Source of the DNA: Halomonas sp. BDJS001
GTDB taxonomy: Bacteria; Pseudomonadota; Gammaproteobacteria; Pseudomonadales; Halomonadaceae
DNA length: 64,000 nucleotides
Reading direction: 5' to 3'
Assembly (NCBI RefSeq): GCF_026104355.1
Contig: NZ_CP110535.1
Location: 1,612,001 to 1,676,000, forward strand
Shown: positions 1,609 through 27,365 of the stretch, piece after piece
How the letters are laid out: every line of letters begins with the position of its first letter
How positions within the stretch are numbered: the first letter of the stretch is position 1
Notes under the pieces: model-generated
Databases searched by the model: none
What the model was told of the DNA's origin: nothing
What the model saw: only the letters and a program-made list of their open reading frames with translations
Position numbers and translations under genes: made by a program

Positions 1609-1728
1609 GCCAAAGCGCCACCGTTTTTTGTTTTGCCAACCTTCTATATGCATAACGTGCACATGCCCTTGGAATCCCCACCGTCATGTGCCTGCGTGAT
1701 TGAGTAGCGCGTATATGGACTCCTCCTC

Positions 1729-1984
1729 GCTTGCAAGCACAAAAGGTCATAGCGGCACGGTCGACTGCTAGCGTATATCCGGTCTCGTAAAAGATGCCTA
1801 ACGTGTGGGCATCGGACCTTAATGGGCTATTCGCACGCCGGGTACCCGCAGGGTAAACGAGCTTTCATGCTCTACGCGCTACACGGTATGGCCCGGCGTC
1901 GGTTCGACCAGTTCGCCATCTCTCTGTGGTGTTGCAATCGGGGTGGTAGAACACTGGTTAAATGTTTCTGACCACGTCGCCTGC
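1729..1984 (-). ncRNA. candidate seekRNA/bridge RNA region of IS copy A
   Basis: Non-coding segment between the transposase stop and the right sub-terminal repeat, equivalent to 26886-27143 of the intact copy. It keeps the segment matching the target (ACGCGCTAC on the plus strand at about 1873-1881). See the intact copy for the reasoning. Transcription is not shown. Confidence 0.45.
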
Positions 1985-3009
1985 TTACGCCGCGGCAATA
2001 ACTCAGGGTTATACGGCACCTCGTAACGCGTGACGGCCCGCCATACGCGCTGTCTTGTTGGCTAGCGCCACAATCGCCACGTTACGATGTTTGCGCACGG
2101 CAAGATGCTTGATCCACTGACTAAGCCCGTCTTCTTGCCTGACGGCAAAACGCAGCACCGCTCGTGCGCCATGTACCATAGCTTTCGTAGATAACTGTTG
2201 CCACGCTACTAATCCCCAGCAGGCGCTCTCGTCGCCCGTGCTGTGTTGACGCGGGGTCAGCCTAACGAGGCGGCAAAGTCGCGTCCTCGCTTGTAAATAG
2301 CGCCGTCACCCAGCACACCCGATAAGGCACTGGCGGTGATGGGGCCAATGCCGCGCAGGGTCATTAAGCGTTTGGCGACGGGGTCAGTGTTGGCGTGCGT
2401 TTCAATGGCAGACGTTAATTGCGCAACGCGCTCGTCTAAATAACGGAGGTCATCCGCTAAGTCGGCCAGAAGGCAGCGAAAGCGGTCACTGAGCCATTGG
2501 TGGCATCCTCCAGCCAAAGAGGCAGCGCCCGCCAGCCAACTGCTGGATACCGGTGGGTGCAGTAAGCCATACTCACCGACGAGGCCACGGATTTGATTGG
2601 CCTTCGCCGTGCGCTGGCTAATCAGCTCTTCACGGATCCGGTGGGTGGCTTGGCAGTCCTGTTGATCAACGGTTTTTACGGCCACGAAGCGCATCGTAGG
2701 ACGGCCTAATGCTTCACAAATCGCTTCAGCATCTGCCCGATCATTTTTATTCGTTTTAACGTAGGCTTCACAGGTGGGCGGCGATCAGCTTGACCTGGTA
2801 ACCACGCGCTTGAAGTTCACGTGCCCAGTAGTGGGCAGACGCACAGGCTTCCATGCCGATGACAGCCCCTTGGGGCACACGGCGCAGATAGCTTCCAACC
2901 ACTTGGCCCGGGAATATTTACCCCGCCATTGAGGCTTCTCATGCCGGTCAACGCCATGTACGTGAAAGACAGACTTTGCGATATCCACACCAACTCGGCT
3001 AATGTTCAT
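1985..3009 (-). pseudogene. IS110-family DEDD transposase, frameshifted (copy A)
   Basis: The start at 3009 and the stop at 1985 match the intact 344-residue transposase at 25851-26885, but the frame is broken several times. The first ~50 residues (MNISRVGVDIAKSVFHVHG...) read through to a lost base where 'gctatctcgcgcc' became 'gctatctgcgcc' near 2890. The middle part (KTVDQQDCQATHRIREEL...) is in another frame at 2257-2694, and a 5-nt change near 2535 alters GIQQLRRAL. Most differences from the intact copy are 1-2 base indels rather than substitutions, so this may be either decay or poor sequence over a repeat. It is not expected to make active protein as written. Confidence 0.85.
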
Positions 3010-3106
3010 ATGGGCTTCTCCTGACTCTCAAGCTGATAGTTTTCCAACCACCTACCAGTATGGCGCACTGACGCCGGAGTAGGGTGAGGAGGAGTCCATC
3101 CCATTG

Positions 3107-3263
3107 GGTAACGAAGAACGCGAGCTCAGCGAGCGTTCGTAGGCACCCGCGAAAGGCGTCGGCACGACGCCCAAGGGCAACCAACCCACACTGCCCACAC
3201 GAGCCAAACTCCGGCACCGCTGCGCGCTGCTCCCGCGGGTGCGCTTCGCTTACCACGCGCTAC
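3107..3263. repeat. palindromic repeat unit 1 (interrupted by IS copy A)
   Basis: With the nine bases at 1704-1712 before the IS, this makes a ~166-bp unit bounded by GTAGCGCGTGGTAA and its inverse TTACCACGCGCTAC (3250-3263). Inside are the near-perfect hairpin GGCGTCGGCACGACGCC, and a GGCACCGCTGCGCGCTGC...GCGGGTGCGC segment that also folds on itself. The same parts recur in units at 3342, 4959, 5785, 25499 and 27276. Sequence beyond the unit (CTCAATCTCGCGTGCACATG) is also shared between copies. Confidence 0.8.
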
Positions 3264-3496: not shown

Positions 3497-3593
3497 CAAT
3501 GGGATGGACTCCTCCTCACCCTACTCCGGCGTCAGTGCGCCATACTGGTAGGTGGTTGGAAAACTATCAGCTTGAGAGTCAGGAGAAGCCCAT

Positions 3594-4623
3594 ATGAACA
3601 TTAGCCGAGTTGGTGTGGATATCGCAAAAGTCTGTCTTTCCACGTACATGGCGTTGACCGGCATGAAGCCTCAATGGCGGGGTAAATATTCCGGGCCAAG
3701 TGGTTTGGAAGCTATCTCGCGCCGTGTGCCCCAAGGGGCTGTCATCGGCATGGAAGCCTGTGCGTCTGCCCACTACTGGGCACGTGAACTTCAAGCGCGT
3801 GGTTACCAGGTCAAGCTGATCGCCGCCCAATTCGTGAAGCCTTACGTTAAAACGAATAAAAATGATCGGGCAGATGCTGAAGCGATTTGTGAAGCATTAG
3901 GCCGTCCTACGATGCGCTTCGTGGCCGTAAAACGTTGATCAACAGGACTGCCAAGCCACCCACCGGATCCGTGAAGAGCTGATTAGCCAGCGCACGGCGA
4001 AGGCCAATCAAATCCGTGGCCTCGTCGGTGAGTATGGGTTTACTGCACCCACCGGTATCCAGCAGTTACGGCGGGCGCTGCCTCTTTGGCTGGAGGATGC
4101 CACCAATGGGCTCAGTGACCGCTTTCGCTGCCTTCTGGCCGACAGCGGATGACCTCCGTTATTTAGACGAGCGCGTTGCGCAATTAACGTCTGCCATTGA
4201 AACGCACGCCAACACTGACCCGTCGCCAAACGCTTAATGACCCTGCGCGGCATTGGCCCCATCACCGCCAGTGCCTTATCGGGTGTGCTGGGTGACGGCG
4301 CTATTTACAAGCGAGGACGCGACTTTGCCGCCTCGTTAGGGCTGACCCCGCGTCAACACAGCACGGGCGGACGAGAGCGCCTGTTGGGGATTAGTAAGCG
4401 TGGCAACAGTTATCTACGAAAGCTGTTGGTACATGGCGCACGAGCGGTGCTGCGTTTTGCCGTCAGGCAAGAAGACAGAGCTTAGTCAGTGGATCAAGCA
4501 TCTTGCCGTGCGCAAACATCGTAACGTGGCGATTGTGGCGCTAGCCAACAAGACAGCGCGTATGGCGTGGCCGTCACGCGTTACGAGGTGCCGTATAACC
4601 CTGAGTTGGCTGCCGCGGCGTAA
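3594..4623 (+). pseudogene. IS110-family DEDD transposase, frameshifted (copy B)
   Basis: Starts at the same ATG and ends at the same TAA as the intact transposase, but in three or more frames. Differences include an extra A in 'gcaaaagtctg', an extra C in 'ctttccacg', 2-nt losses at 'gtaaaacgttg' (near 3930) and 'gccgacagcgg' (near 4143), and single losses at 'gacccgtcgcc' (near 4221) and 'gcgtggccg'. The catalytic N-terminal DEDD region and the C-terminal Ser-containing Tnp20 region are both cut by these changes. Nearly all changes are short indels in runs. Confidence 0.85.
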
Positions 4624-4879
4624 GCGGGCGACGTGGTCAGAAACATTTAACCAGTGTTCCCACCACCCCGATTGCAACACCACAAGAGATGGCGAACTGG
4701 TCGAACCGACGCCAGGCCATACCGTGTAGCGCGTAGAGCATGAAAGCTCGTTTACCCTGCGGGTACCCGGCGTGCGAATAGCCCATTAAGGTCCGATGCC
4801 CACACGTTAGGCATCTTTTACGAGACCGGATATACGCTAGCAGTCGACCGTGCCGCTATGACCTTTTGTGCTTGCAAGC
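4624..4879 (+). ncRNA. candidate seekRNA/bridge RNA region of IS copy B
   Basis: Downstream non-coding part of copy B; it retains GTAGCGCGT followed by the small GAGC...GCTC hairpin and TTTACC, as in the intact copy. A 2-nt loss ('cacaagagatgg') and one A/G difference separate it from copy C. Expression is not shown. Confidence 0.45.
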
Positions 4880-4958
4880 GAGGAGGAGTCCATATACGCG
4901 CTACGGGTGCTCGCTCGATTCCGGTGGCATCCCCACCTGCATGTGCATGCGAGATTGA

Positions 4959-5125
4959 GTAGCGCGTGGTAAGCCTCGGGCGCACCCGCGAAAGCAGCGC
5001 GCAGCGGTGCCGGGGTTGGCCCGTGTAGGCGATGATGGTTCGGTGCCACTGGGCGTCGTTCCGACGCCTCCCGCGGGTGCCTACAAACGCTCGCTGAACT
5101 CGCGTTCTTCGTTACCACGCGCTAC
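4959..5125. repeat. complete palindromic repeat unit 3
   Basis: A complete 167-bp unit from GTAGCGCGTGGTAA (4959-4972) to TTACCACGCGCTAC (5112-5125), in the opposite orientation to units 1 and 2. It contains CGCAGCGGTGCCGGGGTTGG near the left and the hairpin GGGCGTCGTTCCGACGCC in the right half. It is an unoccupied version of the IS target. It follows IS copy B and precedes the antitoxin gene at 5205. Confidence 0.85.
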
Positions 5126-5784: not shown

Positions 5785-5914
5785 GTAGCGCGTGGTAAGC
5801 GAAGCGCACCCGTGGGAGCAGCGCGCAGCGGTGCCGGGGTTGGCCCGTGTAGGCGATGATGGTTCGGTGCCACTGGGCGTCGTTCCGCCGCCTCCCGCGG
5901 GTGCAGCCACTTGA
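5785..5914. repeat. palindromic repeat unit 4, right end missing, next to the RAYT gene
   Basis: Begins with GTAGCGCGTGGTAA (5785-5798) and follows unit 3 closely (GCAGCGGTGCCGGGGTTGGC, then a hairpin CGTCGTTCCGCCGCC with one stem mismatch) to ...CCCGCGGGTGCAGCC near 5914. It then loses the closing TTACCACGCGCTAC and meets the 3' end of the RAYT gene at 5929. The 5' flank (CATGTGCACGCGAGATTTA) is also the shared flank seen at units 1 and 3. Confidence 0.75.
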
Positions 5915-25498: not shown

Positions 25499-25753
25499 GT
25501 CAAGGCATTAGGAGGCGGAACGACGCCCAAATCCACTTCAGCCAAACCCCGGCACCGCTGCGCGCTGCTCCCGCGGGTGCGCTGTAGGCTTACCACGCGC
25601 TACGAAACCCACCGACTTAGCTTCGTGCACATCCCGTAGCGCGCTTGCAATGGTTAGGTCAAGGCATTAGGAGGCGGAACGACGCCCAAATCCACTTCAG
25701 CCAAACCCCGGCACCGCTGCGCGCTGCTCCCGCGGGTGCGCTGTAGGCTTACC
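25482..25753. repeat. 113-bp direct duplication, period 159 bp, carrying repeat unit 5
   Basis: Bases 25482-25594 are repeated exactly at 25641-25753. Each copy holds the last codons of the Cys-rich gene, GGCGGAACGACGCC, the GGCACCGCTGCGCGCTGC segment and TTACC. The first copy continues into an intact ACGCGCTAC (empty IS target); the second continues into IS copy C. Identity over the full length points to a recent event. Confidence 0.9.
25590..25603 (+). other. empty IS1111 target site
   Basis: TTACCACGCGCTAC is uninterrupted here, 151 bp upstream of the same sequence split by IS copy C. Other unoccupied copies are at 3250-3263 and 5112-5125, and in inverse form at 4959-4972, 5785-5798 and 27276-27289. 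It defines the insertion point as TTACC^ACGCGCTAC. Confidence 0.85.
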
Positions 25754-25850
25754 CAATGGGATGGACTCCTCCTCACCCTACTCCGGCGTCAGTGCGCCAT
25801 ACTGGTAGGTGGTTGGAAAACTATCAGCTTGAGAGTCAGGAGAAGCCCAT

Positions 25851-26885
25851 ATGAACATTAGCCGAGTTGGTGTGGATATCGCAAAGTCTGTCTTTCACGT
25901 ACATGGCGTTGACCGGCATGAGAAGCCTCAATGGCGGGGTAAATATTCCCGGGCCAAGTGGTTGGAAGCTATCTCGCGCCGTGTGCCCCAAGGGGCTGTC
26001 ATCGGCATGGAAGCCTGTGCGTCTGCCCACTACTGGGCACGTGAACTTCAAGCGCGTGGTTACCAGGTCAAGCTGATCGCCGCCCAATTCGTGAAGCCTT
26101 ACGTTAAAACGAATAAAAATGATCGGGCAGATGCTGAAGCGATTTGTGAAGCATTAGGCCGTCCTACGATGCGCTTCGTGGCCGTAAAAACCGTTGATCA
26201 ACAGGACTGCCAAGCCACCCACCGGATCCGTGAAGAGCTGATTAGCCAGCGCACGGCGAAGGCCAATCAAATCCGTGGCCTCGTCGGTGAGTATGGGTTT
26301 ACTGCACCCACCGGTATCCAGCAGTTACGGCGGGCGCTGCCTCTTTGGCTGGAGGATGCCACCAATGGGCTCAGTGACCGCTTTCGCTGCCTTCTGGCCG
26401 ACTTAGCGGATGACCTCCGTTATTTAGACGAGCGCGTTGCGCAATTAACGTCTGCCATTGAAACGCACGCCAACACTGACCCCGTCGCCAAACGCTTAAT
26501 GACCCTGCGCGGCATTGGCCCCATCACCGCCAGTGCCTTATCGGGTGTGCTGGGTGACGGCGCTATTTACAAGCGAGGACGCGACTTTGCCGCCTCGTTA
26601 GGGCTGACCCCGCGTCAACACAGCACGGGCGGACGAGAGCGCCTGTTGGGGATTAGTAAGCGTGGCAACAGTTATCTACGAAAGCTGTTGGTACATGGCG
26701 CACGAGCGGTGCTGCGTTTTGCCGTCAGGCAAGAAGACGGGCTTAGTCAGTGGATCAAGCATCTTGCCGTGCGCAAACATCGTAACGTGGCGATTGTGGC
26801 GCTAGCCAACAAGACAGCGCGTATGGCGTGGGCCGTCACGCGTTACGAGGTGCCGTATAACCCTGAGTTGGCTGCCGCGGCGTAA
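25851..26885 (+). CDS. IS110-family DEDD transposase/recombinase (IS1111 group)
   Basis: A 344-residue protein. The N-terminal RuvC-like DEDD domain shows VGVDIAKSVFHVHG (first Asp), IGMEACASAHYWA (Glu) and KTNKNDRADAEAICEA (the last two Asp). A coiled middle part follows, then the C-terminal Tnp20 domain with LRGIGPITASAL and the GLTPRQHSTGGRERLLGISKRG region holding the catalytic Ser. Such recombinases use an RNA from the element's non-coding end to choose the target. The ATG at 25851 follows GTCAGGAGAAGCCCAT, a good ribosome site. It is complete, unlike copies A and B. Confidence 0.95.
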   Translation: MNISRVGVDIAKSVFHVHGVDRHEKPQWRGKYSRAKWLEAISRRVPQGAVIGMEACASAHYWARELQARGYQVKLIAAQFVKPYVKTNKNDRADAEAICEALGRPTMRFVAVKTVDQQDCQATHRIREELISQRTAKANQIRGLVGEYGFTAPTGIQQLRRALPLWLEDATNGLSDRFRCLLADLADDLRYLDERVAQLTSAIETHANTDPVAKRLMTLRGIGPITASALSGVLGDGAIYKRGRDFAASLGLTPRQHSTGGRERLLGISKRGNSYLRKLLVHGARAVLRFAVRQEDGLSQWIKHLAVRKHRNVAIVALANKTARMAWAVTRYEVPYNPELAAAA

Positions 26886-27143
26886 GCGGGCGACGTGGTC
26901 AGAAACATTTAACCAGTGTTCCCACCACCCCGATTGCAACACCACAAGAGAGATGGCGAACTGGTCGAACCGACGCCGGGCCATACCGTGTAGCGCGTAG
27001 AGCATGAAAGCTCGTTTACCCTGCGGGTACCCGGCGTGCGAATAGCCCATTAAGGTCCGATGCCCACACGTTAGGCATCTTTTACGAGACCGGATATACG
27101 CTAGCAGTCGACCGTGCCGCTATGACCTTTTGTGCTTGCAAGC
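26886..27143 (+). ncRNA. candidate seekRNA/bridge RNA of the IS1111 element
   Basis: This is the ~258-nt non-coding region between transposase stop and right sub-terminal repeat, the place where IS1111-group elements encode their guide RNA. It contains GTAGCGCGT (26990-26998), the exact reverse complement of the target's right half ACGCGCTAC. TTACC at 27016-27020 matches the target's left half, and a small GAGC/GCTC hairpin sits between them. CCCATT (27046-27051) is complementary to AATGGG of the left end, as expected for donor recognition. Several further hairpins (for example CTGCGGGTACCCGGCG) are evident. The guide role is inferred from these matches and from IS1111/IS110 biology; no transcript is shown. 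Confidence 0.6.
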
Positions 27144-27275
27144 GAGGAGGAGTCCATATACGCGCTACTAAATCACGCCTGCACATGAAGGCGGGGATTC
27201 CAAGGGAGTGTGCACGTTATGCATATGGCCTTGGCACATAATCACACCACAGAAATCGCGTGAGTACACATACCC

Positions 27276-27365
27276 GTAGCGCGTGGTAACGAAGAACGCG
27301 ATTTCAACGAGTGTTCGCAGGCACCCGCGAATGGCGGCGGAACGACGCCCAGTGGCACCCGACCC
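27276..27365. repeat. partial palindromic repeat unit 6
   Basis: Starts with GTAGCGCGTGGTAA (27276-27289), followed by CGAAGAACGCG, GGCACCCGCGAATGGCGGCG and CGACGCCCAGTGGC as in unit 1, then fades out by about 27365. The segment between IS copy C and this unit (27161-27275) also resembles the spacer at 3264-3341 (GGGGATTCCAAGG, GTGTGCACGT), so repeat plus spacer seem to have been copied together. Confidence 0.7.

What the first reader, a model, noticed from the sequence alone, without database searches (positions are those of the whole stretch)
26886..27159. IS1111 non-coding end carries a guide that matches its own target
The non-coding part between transposase stop and right end contains GTAGCGCGT, the exact reverse complement of the right target half ACGCGCTAC, and 17 bases later TTACC, identical to the left target half. 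They flank a small hairpin. CCCATT, complementary to AATGGG of the left end, lies 25 bases further. This is what a seekRNA/bridge RNA of an IS1111-group element should look like, and all three copies in the window carry it and sit in that target.
Basis: partly seen in the sequence, partly recalled or inferred. Interest (0 to 1): 0.85.

Follow-up and report, generated by a model that had tools for sequence, protein, structure and literature searches.

The report
IS1111 element with target-guiding RNA
This is a mobile DNA element whose non-coding end encodes a small guide RNA that matches both the place where the element inserts and the element's own ends; such RNA-guided elements have been known since 2024, and relatives show that guide and target change together.

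Summary
The element (25754-27160) is an IS1111-group member of the IS110 family: RNA-guided DEDD transposase, 12-bp subterminal repeats, non-coding region downstream. In 82 dereplicated relatives with 58 different left-target 5-mers, guide and target change together: cognate match score 926 versus 413 +/- 16 when targets are permuted (maximum 494 of 100,000). Of 83 pairs with at least 80% identical non-coding background but different left targets, 83 favour the cognate pairing. An unbiased column scan returned TTACC and GTAGCGCG. The fold has compensatory changes in 18 of 27 pairs, and a covariance model built without this subfamily finds all three window copies (E at most 3.3e-29). That bears on a point where the two 2024 papers differ (target guide only versus bispecific bridge RNA). 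One oddity: empty targets in this genome's repeats carry an extra central base that all 10 copies examined lack. New member of a known kind; transcription was not testable.

The parts
25749..25753 (+). left target half TTACC (host repeat)
25754..25760 (+). left terminal extension CAATGGG (7 bp); bases 3-7 are the right-donor sequence read by the RDG
25761..25772 (+). left subterminal inverted repeat ATGGACTCCTCC (12 bp, perfect)
   Evidence: 12 of 12 for the identical ends of copy L002
25851..26885 (+). IS110/IS1111 transposase, 344 aa; PF01548 + PF02371; NCBIfam NF033542 'IS110 family RNA-guided transposase'
   Evidence: candidate DEDD residues D9, E54, D91, D94 and S258 assigned by motif, from recall (positions)
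26886..27145 (+). non-coding region downstream of tnp
26951..27106 (+). guide RNA core (156 nt): match to a covariance model built from relatives without this subfamily, 113.2 bits, E 9e-31
26952..26956 (+). GATGG: pairs inside the RNA with 27047-27051 (overlapping the donor guide); resembles the left end AATGG
26990..26998 (+). right target guide (RTG) GTAGCGCG, complementary to top strand CGCGCTAC (27161-27168); the T at 26998 can also pair with A27160
27000..27013 (+). hairpin GAGC/GCTC between the two target guides (helix 5)
27016..27021 (+). left target guide (LTG) TTACC, same as the left target top strand (pairs with the bottom strand), plus core base C27021
27046..27050 (+). right donor guide (RDG) CCCAT, complementary to left-end bases 3-7 (ATGGG)
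27094..27100 (+). left donor guide (LDG) ATATA + core C + G, same as the right-end tip ATATA followed by CG
27146..27157 (+). right subterminal inverted repeat GGAGGAGTCCAT
27158..27160 (+). right terminal extension ATA (3 bp; possibly 2 bp, see oddity)
27161..27168 (+). right target half CGCGCTAC (host repeat)
1712..3106 (-). second copy of the element; guide RNA match 1766-1921 (E 9e-31); transposase frame broken
3497..4896 (+). third copy of the element; guide RNA match 4687-4842 (E 3.3e-29); transposase frame broken
25590..25603 (+). an unoccupied target TTACCACGCGCTAC (others: 3250-3263 +, 4959-4972 -, 5112-5125 +, 5785-5798 -, 27276-27289 -)

Best explanation
The 3' non-coding region of this IS1111-group element specifies a bispecific guide RNA (seekRNA/bridge RNA) of about 156 nt. 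It binds the element's own DEDD transposase and directs its insertion. [quoted passage not shown] Shown here: the sequence matches, conserved fold, covariation of target guides with target, covariation of donor guides with ends. Inferred from experiments on relatives in the cited papers: transcription, protein binding, circle formation, strand exchange.
For: Unbiased scan of all non-coding columns against 28 target positions, 83 dereplicated relatives: best same-sequence diagonal is TTACC vs -5..-1 (match 0.86-0.96 vs 0.27-0.39 permuted), and the 14 best complementary diagonals all lie at 26988-26999, the top ones GTAGCGCG vs +9..+2. Cognate vs permuted 926 vs 413 +/- 16.5 in 82; of 83 background-matched pairs the cognate sum beats the swapped sum in 83 (LTG alone 82) and both cognates beat both swaps in 77. 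Loci not used before: 183 vs 89.3 +/- 9.0 for 18 of 33; with ends found without guides 112 vs 57.9 +/- 7.5 for 12 of 34, one of them a duplicate of an earlier locus. Left target changes at least 60 times on the transposase tree. Donor guides: LDG dinucleotide equals right-end dinucleotide in 80 of 82, with at least 10 changes of that dinucleotide on the tree; RDG pairs with LE6 in 81 of 82 and with LE7 in 69 of 82 (80 with G-U); core base identical in left end, right target, LTG and LDG in 77 of 82. Structure: 97.1% of cells paired, 18 of 27 pairs with two-sided changes, covariation score 0.528 vs 0.168 shuffled and at most 0.108 slid (the structure was derived from the same alignment, which favours it somewhat). 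Covariance model without this subfamily hits all three window copies.
Against: No transcript or activity data. Some elements sit in sites that their guide matches poorly (L170, L035; L185). In 32 of 82 at least one other element's target matches as well as or better than its own (shared or similar targets count). Independent-pair tests for donor guides are few: they never go the opposite way, but p-values are 0.03 to 1. RDG bases overlap an internal helix, so part of their conservation is structural. Siddiquee et al. report that the 82-nt ISEc11 seekRNA suffices for movement (PMC11187229, section 10 read), which argues against a donor loop being essential.
Confidence: 0.91

Rival explanations
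1. Target guide only: the RNA reads the target by base pairing, while the element's ends are recognised by protein contacts with the subterminal repeats; the donor-side matches reflect RNA structure or shared ancestry.
For: The 82-nt ISEc11 seekRNA, described with target matches only, is enough for movement (PMC11187229, sections 8-10 read). RDG overlaps an internal helix. Ends vary little, few independent switches.
Against: The LDG is in no helix of the consensus structure and follows the right-end dinucleotide in 80 of 82, at least 10 tree changes. RDG base 163 follows LE7 (80 of 82 with G-U), although in 77 of 82 it does not pair with the next internal base; in three elements where the internal partner changed (L077, L106, L143), RDG still pairs with the left end.
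Confidence: 0.13
2. The matches are relics, for instance target DNA captured into the non-coding region, with no guide function.
For: Short matches such as TTACC and CCCATT occur often by chance.
Against: The same two columns match different targets in many relatives, inside a fold with compensatory changes.
Confidence: 0.01
3. The region is a structured 3' UTR or regulatory RNA of the transposase gene, and target choice lies in the protein.
For: Strong conserved fold just downstream of tnp.
Against: Targets switch between elements with 80-93% identical non-coding background, and it is the guide columns that switch with them.
Confidence: 0.03

Closest known systems
IS1111-family elements with seekRNA (ISEc11, ISKpn4, ISPst6, ISPa11), PMC11187229
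   Same: DEDD transposase of similar size, subterminal repeats with 7/3 extensions, non-coding region downstream of tnp, top-strand complement 5' of bottom-strand match, insertion into a foldable repeat (like ISPa11 in REP, ISKpn4 in attC)
   Different: Own target and guide; a donor-guide pair is visible here that the paper does not describe in the sections read; the empty target has one extra central base
Bridge RNA of IS110/IS1111 elements (IS621 and predicted IS1111 members), PMC11208160
   Same: Target loop and donor loop, four guide segments sharing a core base; the paper predicts donor-binding nucleotides in a multiloop for many IS1111 orthologues, as here
   Different: IS621 has the RNA in the left end, upstream of tnp, with LTG before RTG; here it lies in the right end with RTG before LTG and RDG before LDG
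IS621 and ISCro4 recombinases of known structure (PDB 8wt6, 9t56)
   Same: The two solved transposases that the sequence search finds (E 9.8e-7 and 5.3e-7)
   Different: The matched stretch lies in the C-terminal half of the transposase (residues 190-337 and 212-337)

Membership tests
IS1111 group of the IS110 family | DEDD (RuvC-like) plus Transposase_20 transposase | tested here: met
   PF01548 E 2e-15, PF02371 E 1.3e-21; NF033542 331.7 bits, cut-off 140
IS1111 group of the IS110 family | subterminal inverted repeats of 11-13 bp | tested here: met
   12 of 12
IS1111 group of the IS110 family | terminal extensions of 7 bp left and 3 bp right, no target duplication | tested here: inconclusive
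   Reads as 7/3 and no duplication, but relative to the empty repeat one base is missing, so 7/2 plus a target A is also possible
IS1111 group of the IS110 family | long non-coding region downstream of tnp | tested here: met
   26886-27145
IS1111 seekRNA | complement of target top strand lies 5' of the bottom-strand match | tested here: met
   RTG 26990-26997 before LTG 27016-27020; covariation
IS1111 seekRNA | RNA of 70-100 nt (and 145-170 nt precursor) bound to the transposase | not testable with these tools
   needs small-RNA sequencing; the predicted core is 156 nt
Bridge RNA | second loop with left and right donor guides pairing with the joined ends | tested here: met
   sequence and covariation only: LDG 80 of 82, RDG LE6 81 of 82; binding not tested
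IS110 group proper (IS621-like) | RNA in the left end, upstream of tnp; no long subterminal repeats | tested here: not met
   RNA is in the right end; 12-bp repeats
Rfam family | match at gathering score | tested here: not met
   none over the element; the one match at relaxed threshold is a miRNA family at E 0.51

The most novel reading that the evidence does not exclude
IS1111 seekRNAs are complete bridge RNAs: besides the target they read both element ends through an LDG and an RDG, with one core base shared by left end, target, LTG and LDG. In the free RNA the RDG is masked by an internal copy of the left end (GATGG), so that donor loading would require strand exchange. In this subfamily the target carries one extra central base that is lost on insertion.
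Probability: 0.35. Interest if true: 0.6.

Novelty: new member of a known kind. Interest (0 to 1): 0.42.

Why it matters
It is an independent, comparative confirmation, from raw sequence, that IS1111 elements choose targets by RNA guides, with a large set of natural re-targetings (58 left-target 5-mers in 82 elements). The donor-guide covariation bears on a point where the two 2024 papers differ: a target-only seekRNA, or a bispecific bridge RNA. It says which bases to change to find out, and yields compact systems to test in laboratory E. coli.

Tried and rejected
Pre-existing targets without the central base as the explanation of the missing base: rejected for this genome. Only 2 of 182 pattern matches in five genomes lack the extra base, and neither has a second site within its 500-600 fetched bases, so by eye they lie outside the palindromic repeats, while 10 of 10 copies examined lack it. 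One of the five genomes (G249) shows a single pattern match (with T), so its target repeat was not seen. G221 has a third, weaker transposase match that was not examined.

Tandem copies that would show the circle junction (ATATA|CAATGGG or ATAT|CAATGGG): none in 275 genomes with one exact pattern, so the 7/3 versus 7/2 question stays open.

Rfam: no family. Automatic sTIR choice by best 12-mer alone picked host repeats for several loci; it was replaced by bounded positions plus the AAT of the left end. L057 came out with wrong ends and was dropped. A first run on new loci found ends in 12 of 34, three of them (L202, L208, L216) wrongly, as one search showed, and L185 with a poor match. The second run used donor guides to find ends (19 of 34), so its donor columns are not an independent test. 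On rechecking, L190 proved identical to L075 and was removed (18 of 33). L186 was not given to these runs because its locus ends at the transposase; the 29 loci are the best matches of a longer list.

Rows dropped: 171 loci read, 168 with a transposase hit, 32 without acceptable ends (the frameshifted window copy L004 among them), 4 more with short flanks or N, 83 after 95% dereplication, 82 without L057. The fold alignment used 57 of 68 available sequences; the covariance model used 39.

Full report
What is there. The window lies at 1612001-1676000 of a 4.97-Mb single-contig genome. The nearest named relatives with the element (95-97% transposase identity) are Halomonas and Vreelandella records. 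The element is 1407 bp, 25754-27160: CAATGGG, subterminal repeat ATGGACTCCTCC, transposase 25851-26885, non-coding region, GGAGGAGTCCAT, ATA. The transposase matches PF01548 and PF02371 and NCBIfam's 'IS110 family RNA-guided transposase'. Five copies exist in the genome, three of them in the window. The 344-aa frame is intact in the copies at 25754, L172 and L173 and broken in the copies at 1712 and 3497, while all five keep the guide RNA.

The observation. GTAGCGCGT arises in 63 of 20,000 shuffles of the stretch; TTACC (7702) and CCCATT (2050) are common by chance; GTAGCGCGT with TTACC within 30 bases arises in 3 of 20,000.

Collecting relatives. The transposase was sought in 275 genomes of the family (86 with a match, the window's own included) and in the genome contigs (80 best of 403 relatives kept). 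Further copies were taken by place. Of 171 loci, 168 had a transposase hit and 136 had recognisable ends; 83 remained after removing four with short flanks or N and dereplicating non-coding regions at 95%; 82 after dropping L057, whose ends were mis-set.

Guide and target change together. I compared every non-coding column with every target position from -14 to +14 and ranked diagonals against 300 permutations, without telling the script where the guides were. The best same-sequence diagonal is TTACC (27016-27020) against -5 to -1 (match 0.86-0.96, permuted 0.27-0.39). The 14 best complementary diagonals all lie at 26988-26999; the top ones are GTAGCGCG (26990-26997) against +9 to +2 (0.46-0.66 against 0.22-0.29, except +3, which varies little: 0.81 against 0.65). 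Scored as pairs, cognates match 4.59 of 5 (LTG) and 6.71 of 8 (RTG); non-cognates 1.55 and 3.41. The total is 926 against a permuted mean of 413, sd 16.5, maximum 494 of 100,000; 50 of 82 match their own target strictly better than every other. Among 83 pairs with at least 80% identical non-coding background and left targets differing at two or more of five bases, the cognate sum beats the swapped sum in 83 (LTG alone 82) and both cognates beat both swaps in 77. The left target changes at least 60 times on the transposase tree. Example: L160 (right target CGCAATGA, guide TCATTGCG) and L151 (CGCGATGA, TCATCGCG), with 93% identical background.

Check on new loci. A covariance model built from 39 relatives without this subfamily finds the three window copies at E 9e-31, 9e-31 and 3.3e-29, the next best hit at 0.023, the five genomic copies and nothing else at E up to 0.001, and hits at E up to 1e-10 in 62 of 369 genomes drawn evenly from the class, the window's own included. 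Of 34 loci not used before, one (L190) turned out identical to L075 and was removed; of the other 33 both ends were found in 18, with guide-target score 183 against 89.3 +/- 9.0, maximum 133 of 20,000. With ends found without guides, 12 of 34, L190 included: 112 against 57.9 +/- 7.5. Against: L185, on a Citrobacter plasmid, matches its flanks in only 2 of 5 and 2 of 8; L170 and L035 match poorly too.

Structure. On 57 sequences the consensus has 27 pairs, 97.1% of cells paired, 18 pairs with two-sided changes, covariation score 0.528 (shuffled 0.168; slid partners at most 0.108); the structure was derived from this alignment, which favours it somewhat. The two target guides lie on either side of a small hairpin inside a covarying 8-bp stem. 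The single sequence folds only moderately better than shuffles (z -2.1), so the evidence for structure is comparative.

Donor guides. CCCAT (27046-27050) is complementary to left-end bases 3-7. It changes with them: left end CAATGAG goes with CTCAT, CAATGGT with ACCAT, CAATGAA with TTCAT. Watson-Crick pairing with LE6 holds in 81 of 82 and with LE7 in 69 of 82 (80 with G-U). ATATA at 27094-27098 equals the right-end tip; its variable dinucleotide equals that of the element in 80 of 82, with at least 10 changes on the tree, the exceptions being L012 and L020. The base after the LTG, the base after the LDG, the first base of the left end and the first base of the right target are the same in 77 of 82. 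Independent tree pairs never contradict the link but are few (p 0.03 to 1). CCATT also pairs inside the RNA with GATGG (26952-26956), so part of its conservation could be structural. Against that: in 77 of 82 the base that faces LE7 does not pair with the next internal base, and three elements whose internal partner changed keep pairing with the left end.

An oddity. In five genomes 180 of 182 matches to the target pattern have one extra central base, mostly A (TTACC-A-CGCGCTAC); the two without it show no second site nearby and appear to lie outside the repeats. One of these genomes (G249) has a single match, with T. The 10 copies examined in these genomes (five in the window's own genome, five in four relatives) read TTAC(C or G)|CAATGGG...ATA|CG(C or T)GCTAC. 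In other genomes empty targets have no extra base: 88 of 88, 6 of 6, 1 of 1. Either insertion removes the base, or the right end of this subfamily is 2 bp. Tandem copies that would decide were not found in 275 genomes.

The target. The 14-bp site stands at both ends of a palindromic unit of about 165 bp (163 and 167 in the two folded), which can fold as one long hairpin (about -88 kcal/mol). The genome has 33 pattern matches, 23 of them between 1.556 and 1.640 Mb, around the window. Use of foldable repeats as targets is known for ISPa11 (REP) and ISKpn4 (attC) (PMC11187229, section 8 read).

Comparison with the known. PMC11187229 (outline, first part of the text, sections 8-10, 13, 14 and passages read) defines the IS1111 seekRNA: downstream region, 7/3 extensions, top-strand complement before bottom-strand match, all seen here with the caveat on 7/3. 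PMC11208160 (passages read) predicts bridge RNAs in 93.0% of IS1111 elements and potential donor nucleotides in a multiloop in many IS1111 orthologues, with manual inspection of six elements, three per group. My paper searches listed no further study of IS1111 guides in the library held; most subscription papers and bioRxiv are outside it. So the kind is known, this member and its target are not described there as far as these searches show, and the comparative support for donor guides in the IS1111 group is the useful addition.

How it most likely works. The RNA from the right end binds the transposase. On insertion, the target loop pairs with both strands of TTACC/CGCGCTAC, and the donor loop pairs with the joined ends ATA|CAATGGG of the circle, around a shared core C. 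Pairing and fold are shown comparatively; transcription, binding and strand exchange are inferred from the experiments in the two papers.

Noticed in passing
window 4959-5125, 25590-25603, 27276-27289 and other sites: A dispersed palindromic repeat (163 and 167 bp in two examples, ends GTAGCGCGTGGTAA ... TTACCACGCGCTAC) folds into one long hairpin and forms arrays; 33 end-pattern matches in this genome (6 in the window), 46, 43 and 59 in three related genomes, one in a fourth.
   Followed up: partly
window 1712-3106 and 3497-4896: Two inverted copies of the element lie 390 bp apart, both with frameshifted transposases but near-intact guide RNAs; they might move in trans.
   Followed up: partly
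window 5000-25700: Between the copies lie two capsule polysaccharide synthesis proteins (PF05159), a 2483-aa polyketide synthase, an aminotransferase and a sulfatase (10 ORFs scanned): a surface-polysaccharide-like locus flanked by copies of one element.
   Followed up: no
L185 1151-2553: A relative on a Citrobacter freundii IncC plasmid sits in a site that its guides do not match (2 of 5, 2 of 8), possibly an off-target landing.
   Followed up: no
L126, L127, L017: Three copies in one genome (G260) with non-coding regions 99.7-100% alike sit in rather different targets, a sign of relaxed targeting.
   Followed up: no
L012 and L020, right flank: Both elements have a right end reading AGT followed by the same flank GCGCCAGGCGAAGCC, unlike their guides; perhaps a truncated or replaced right end.
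   Followed up: no
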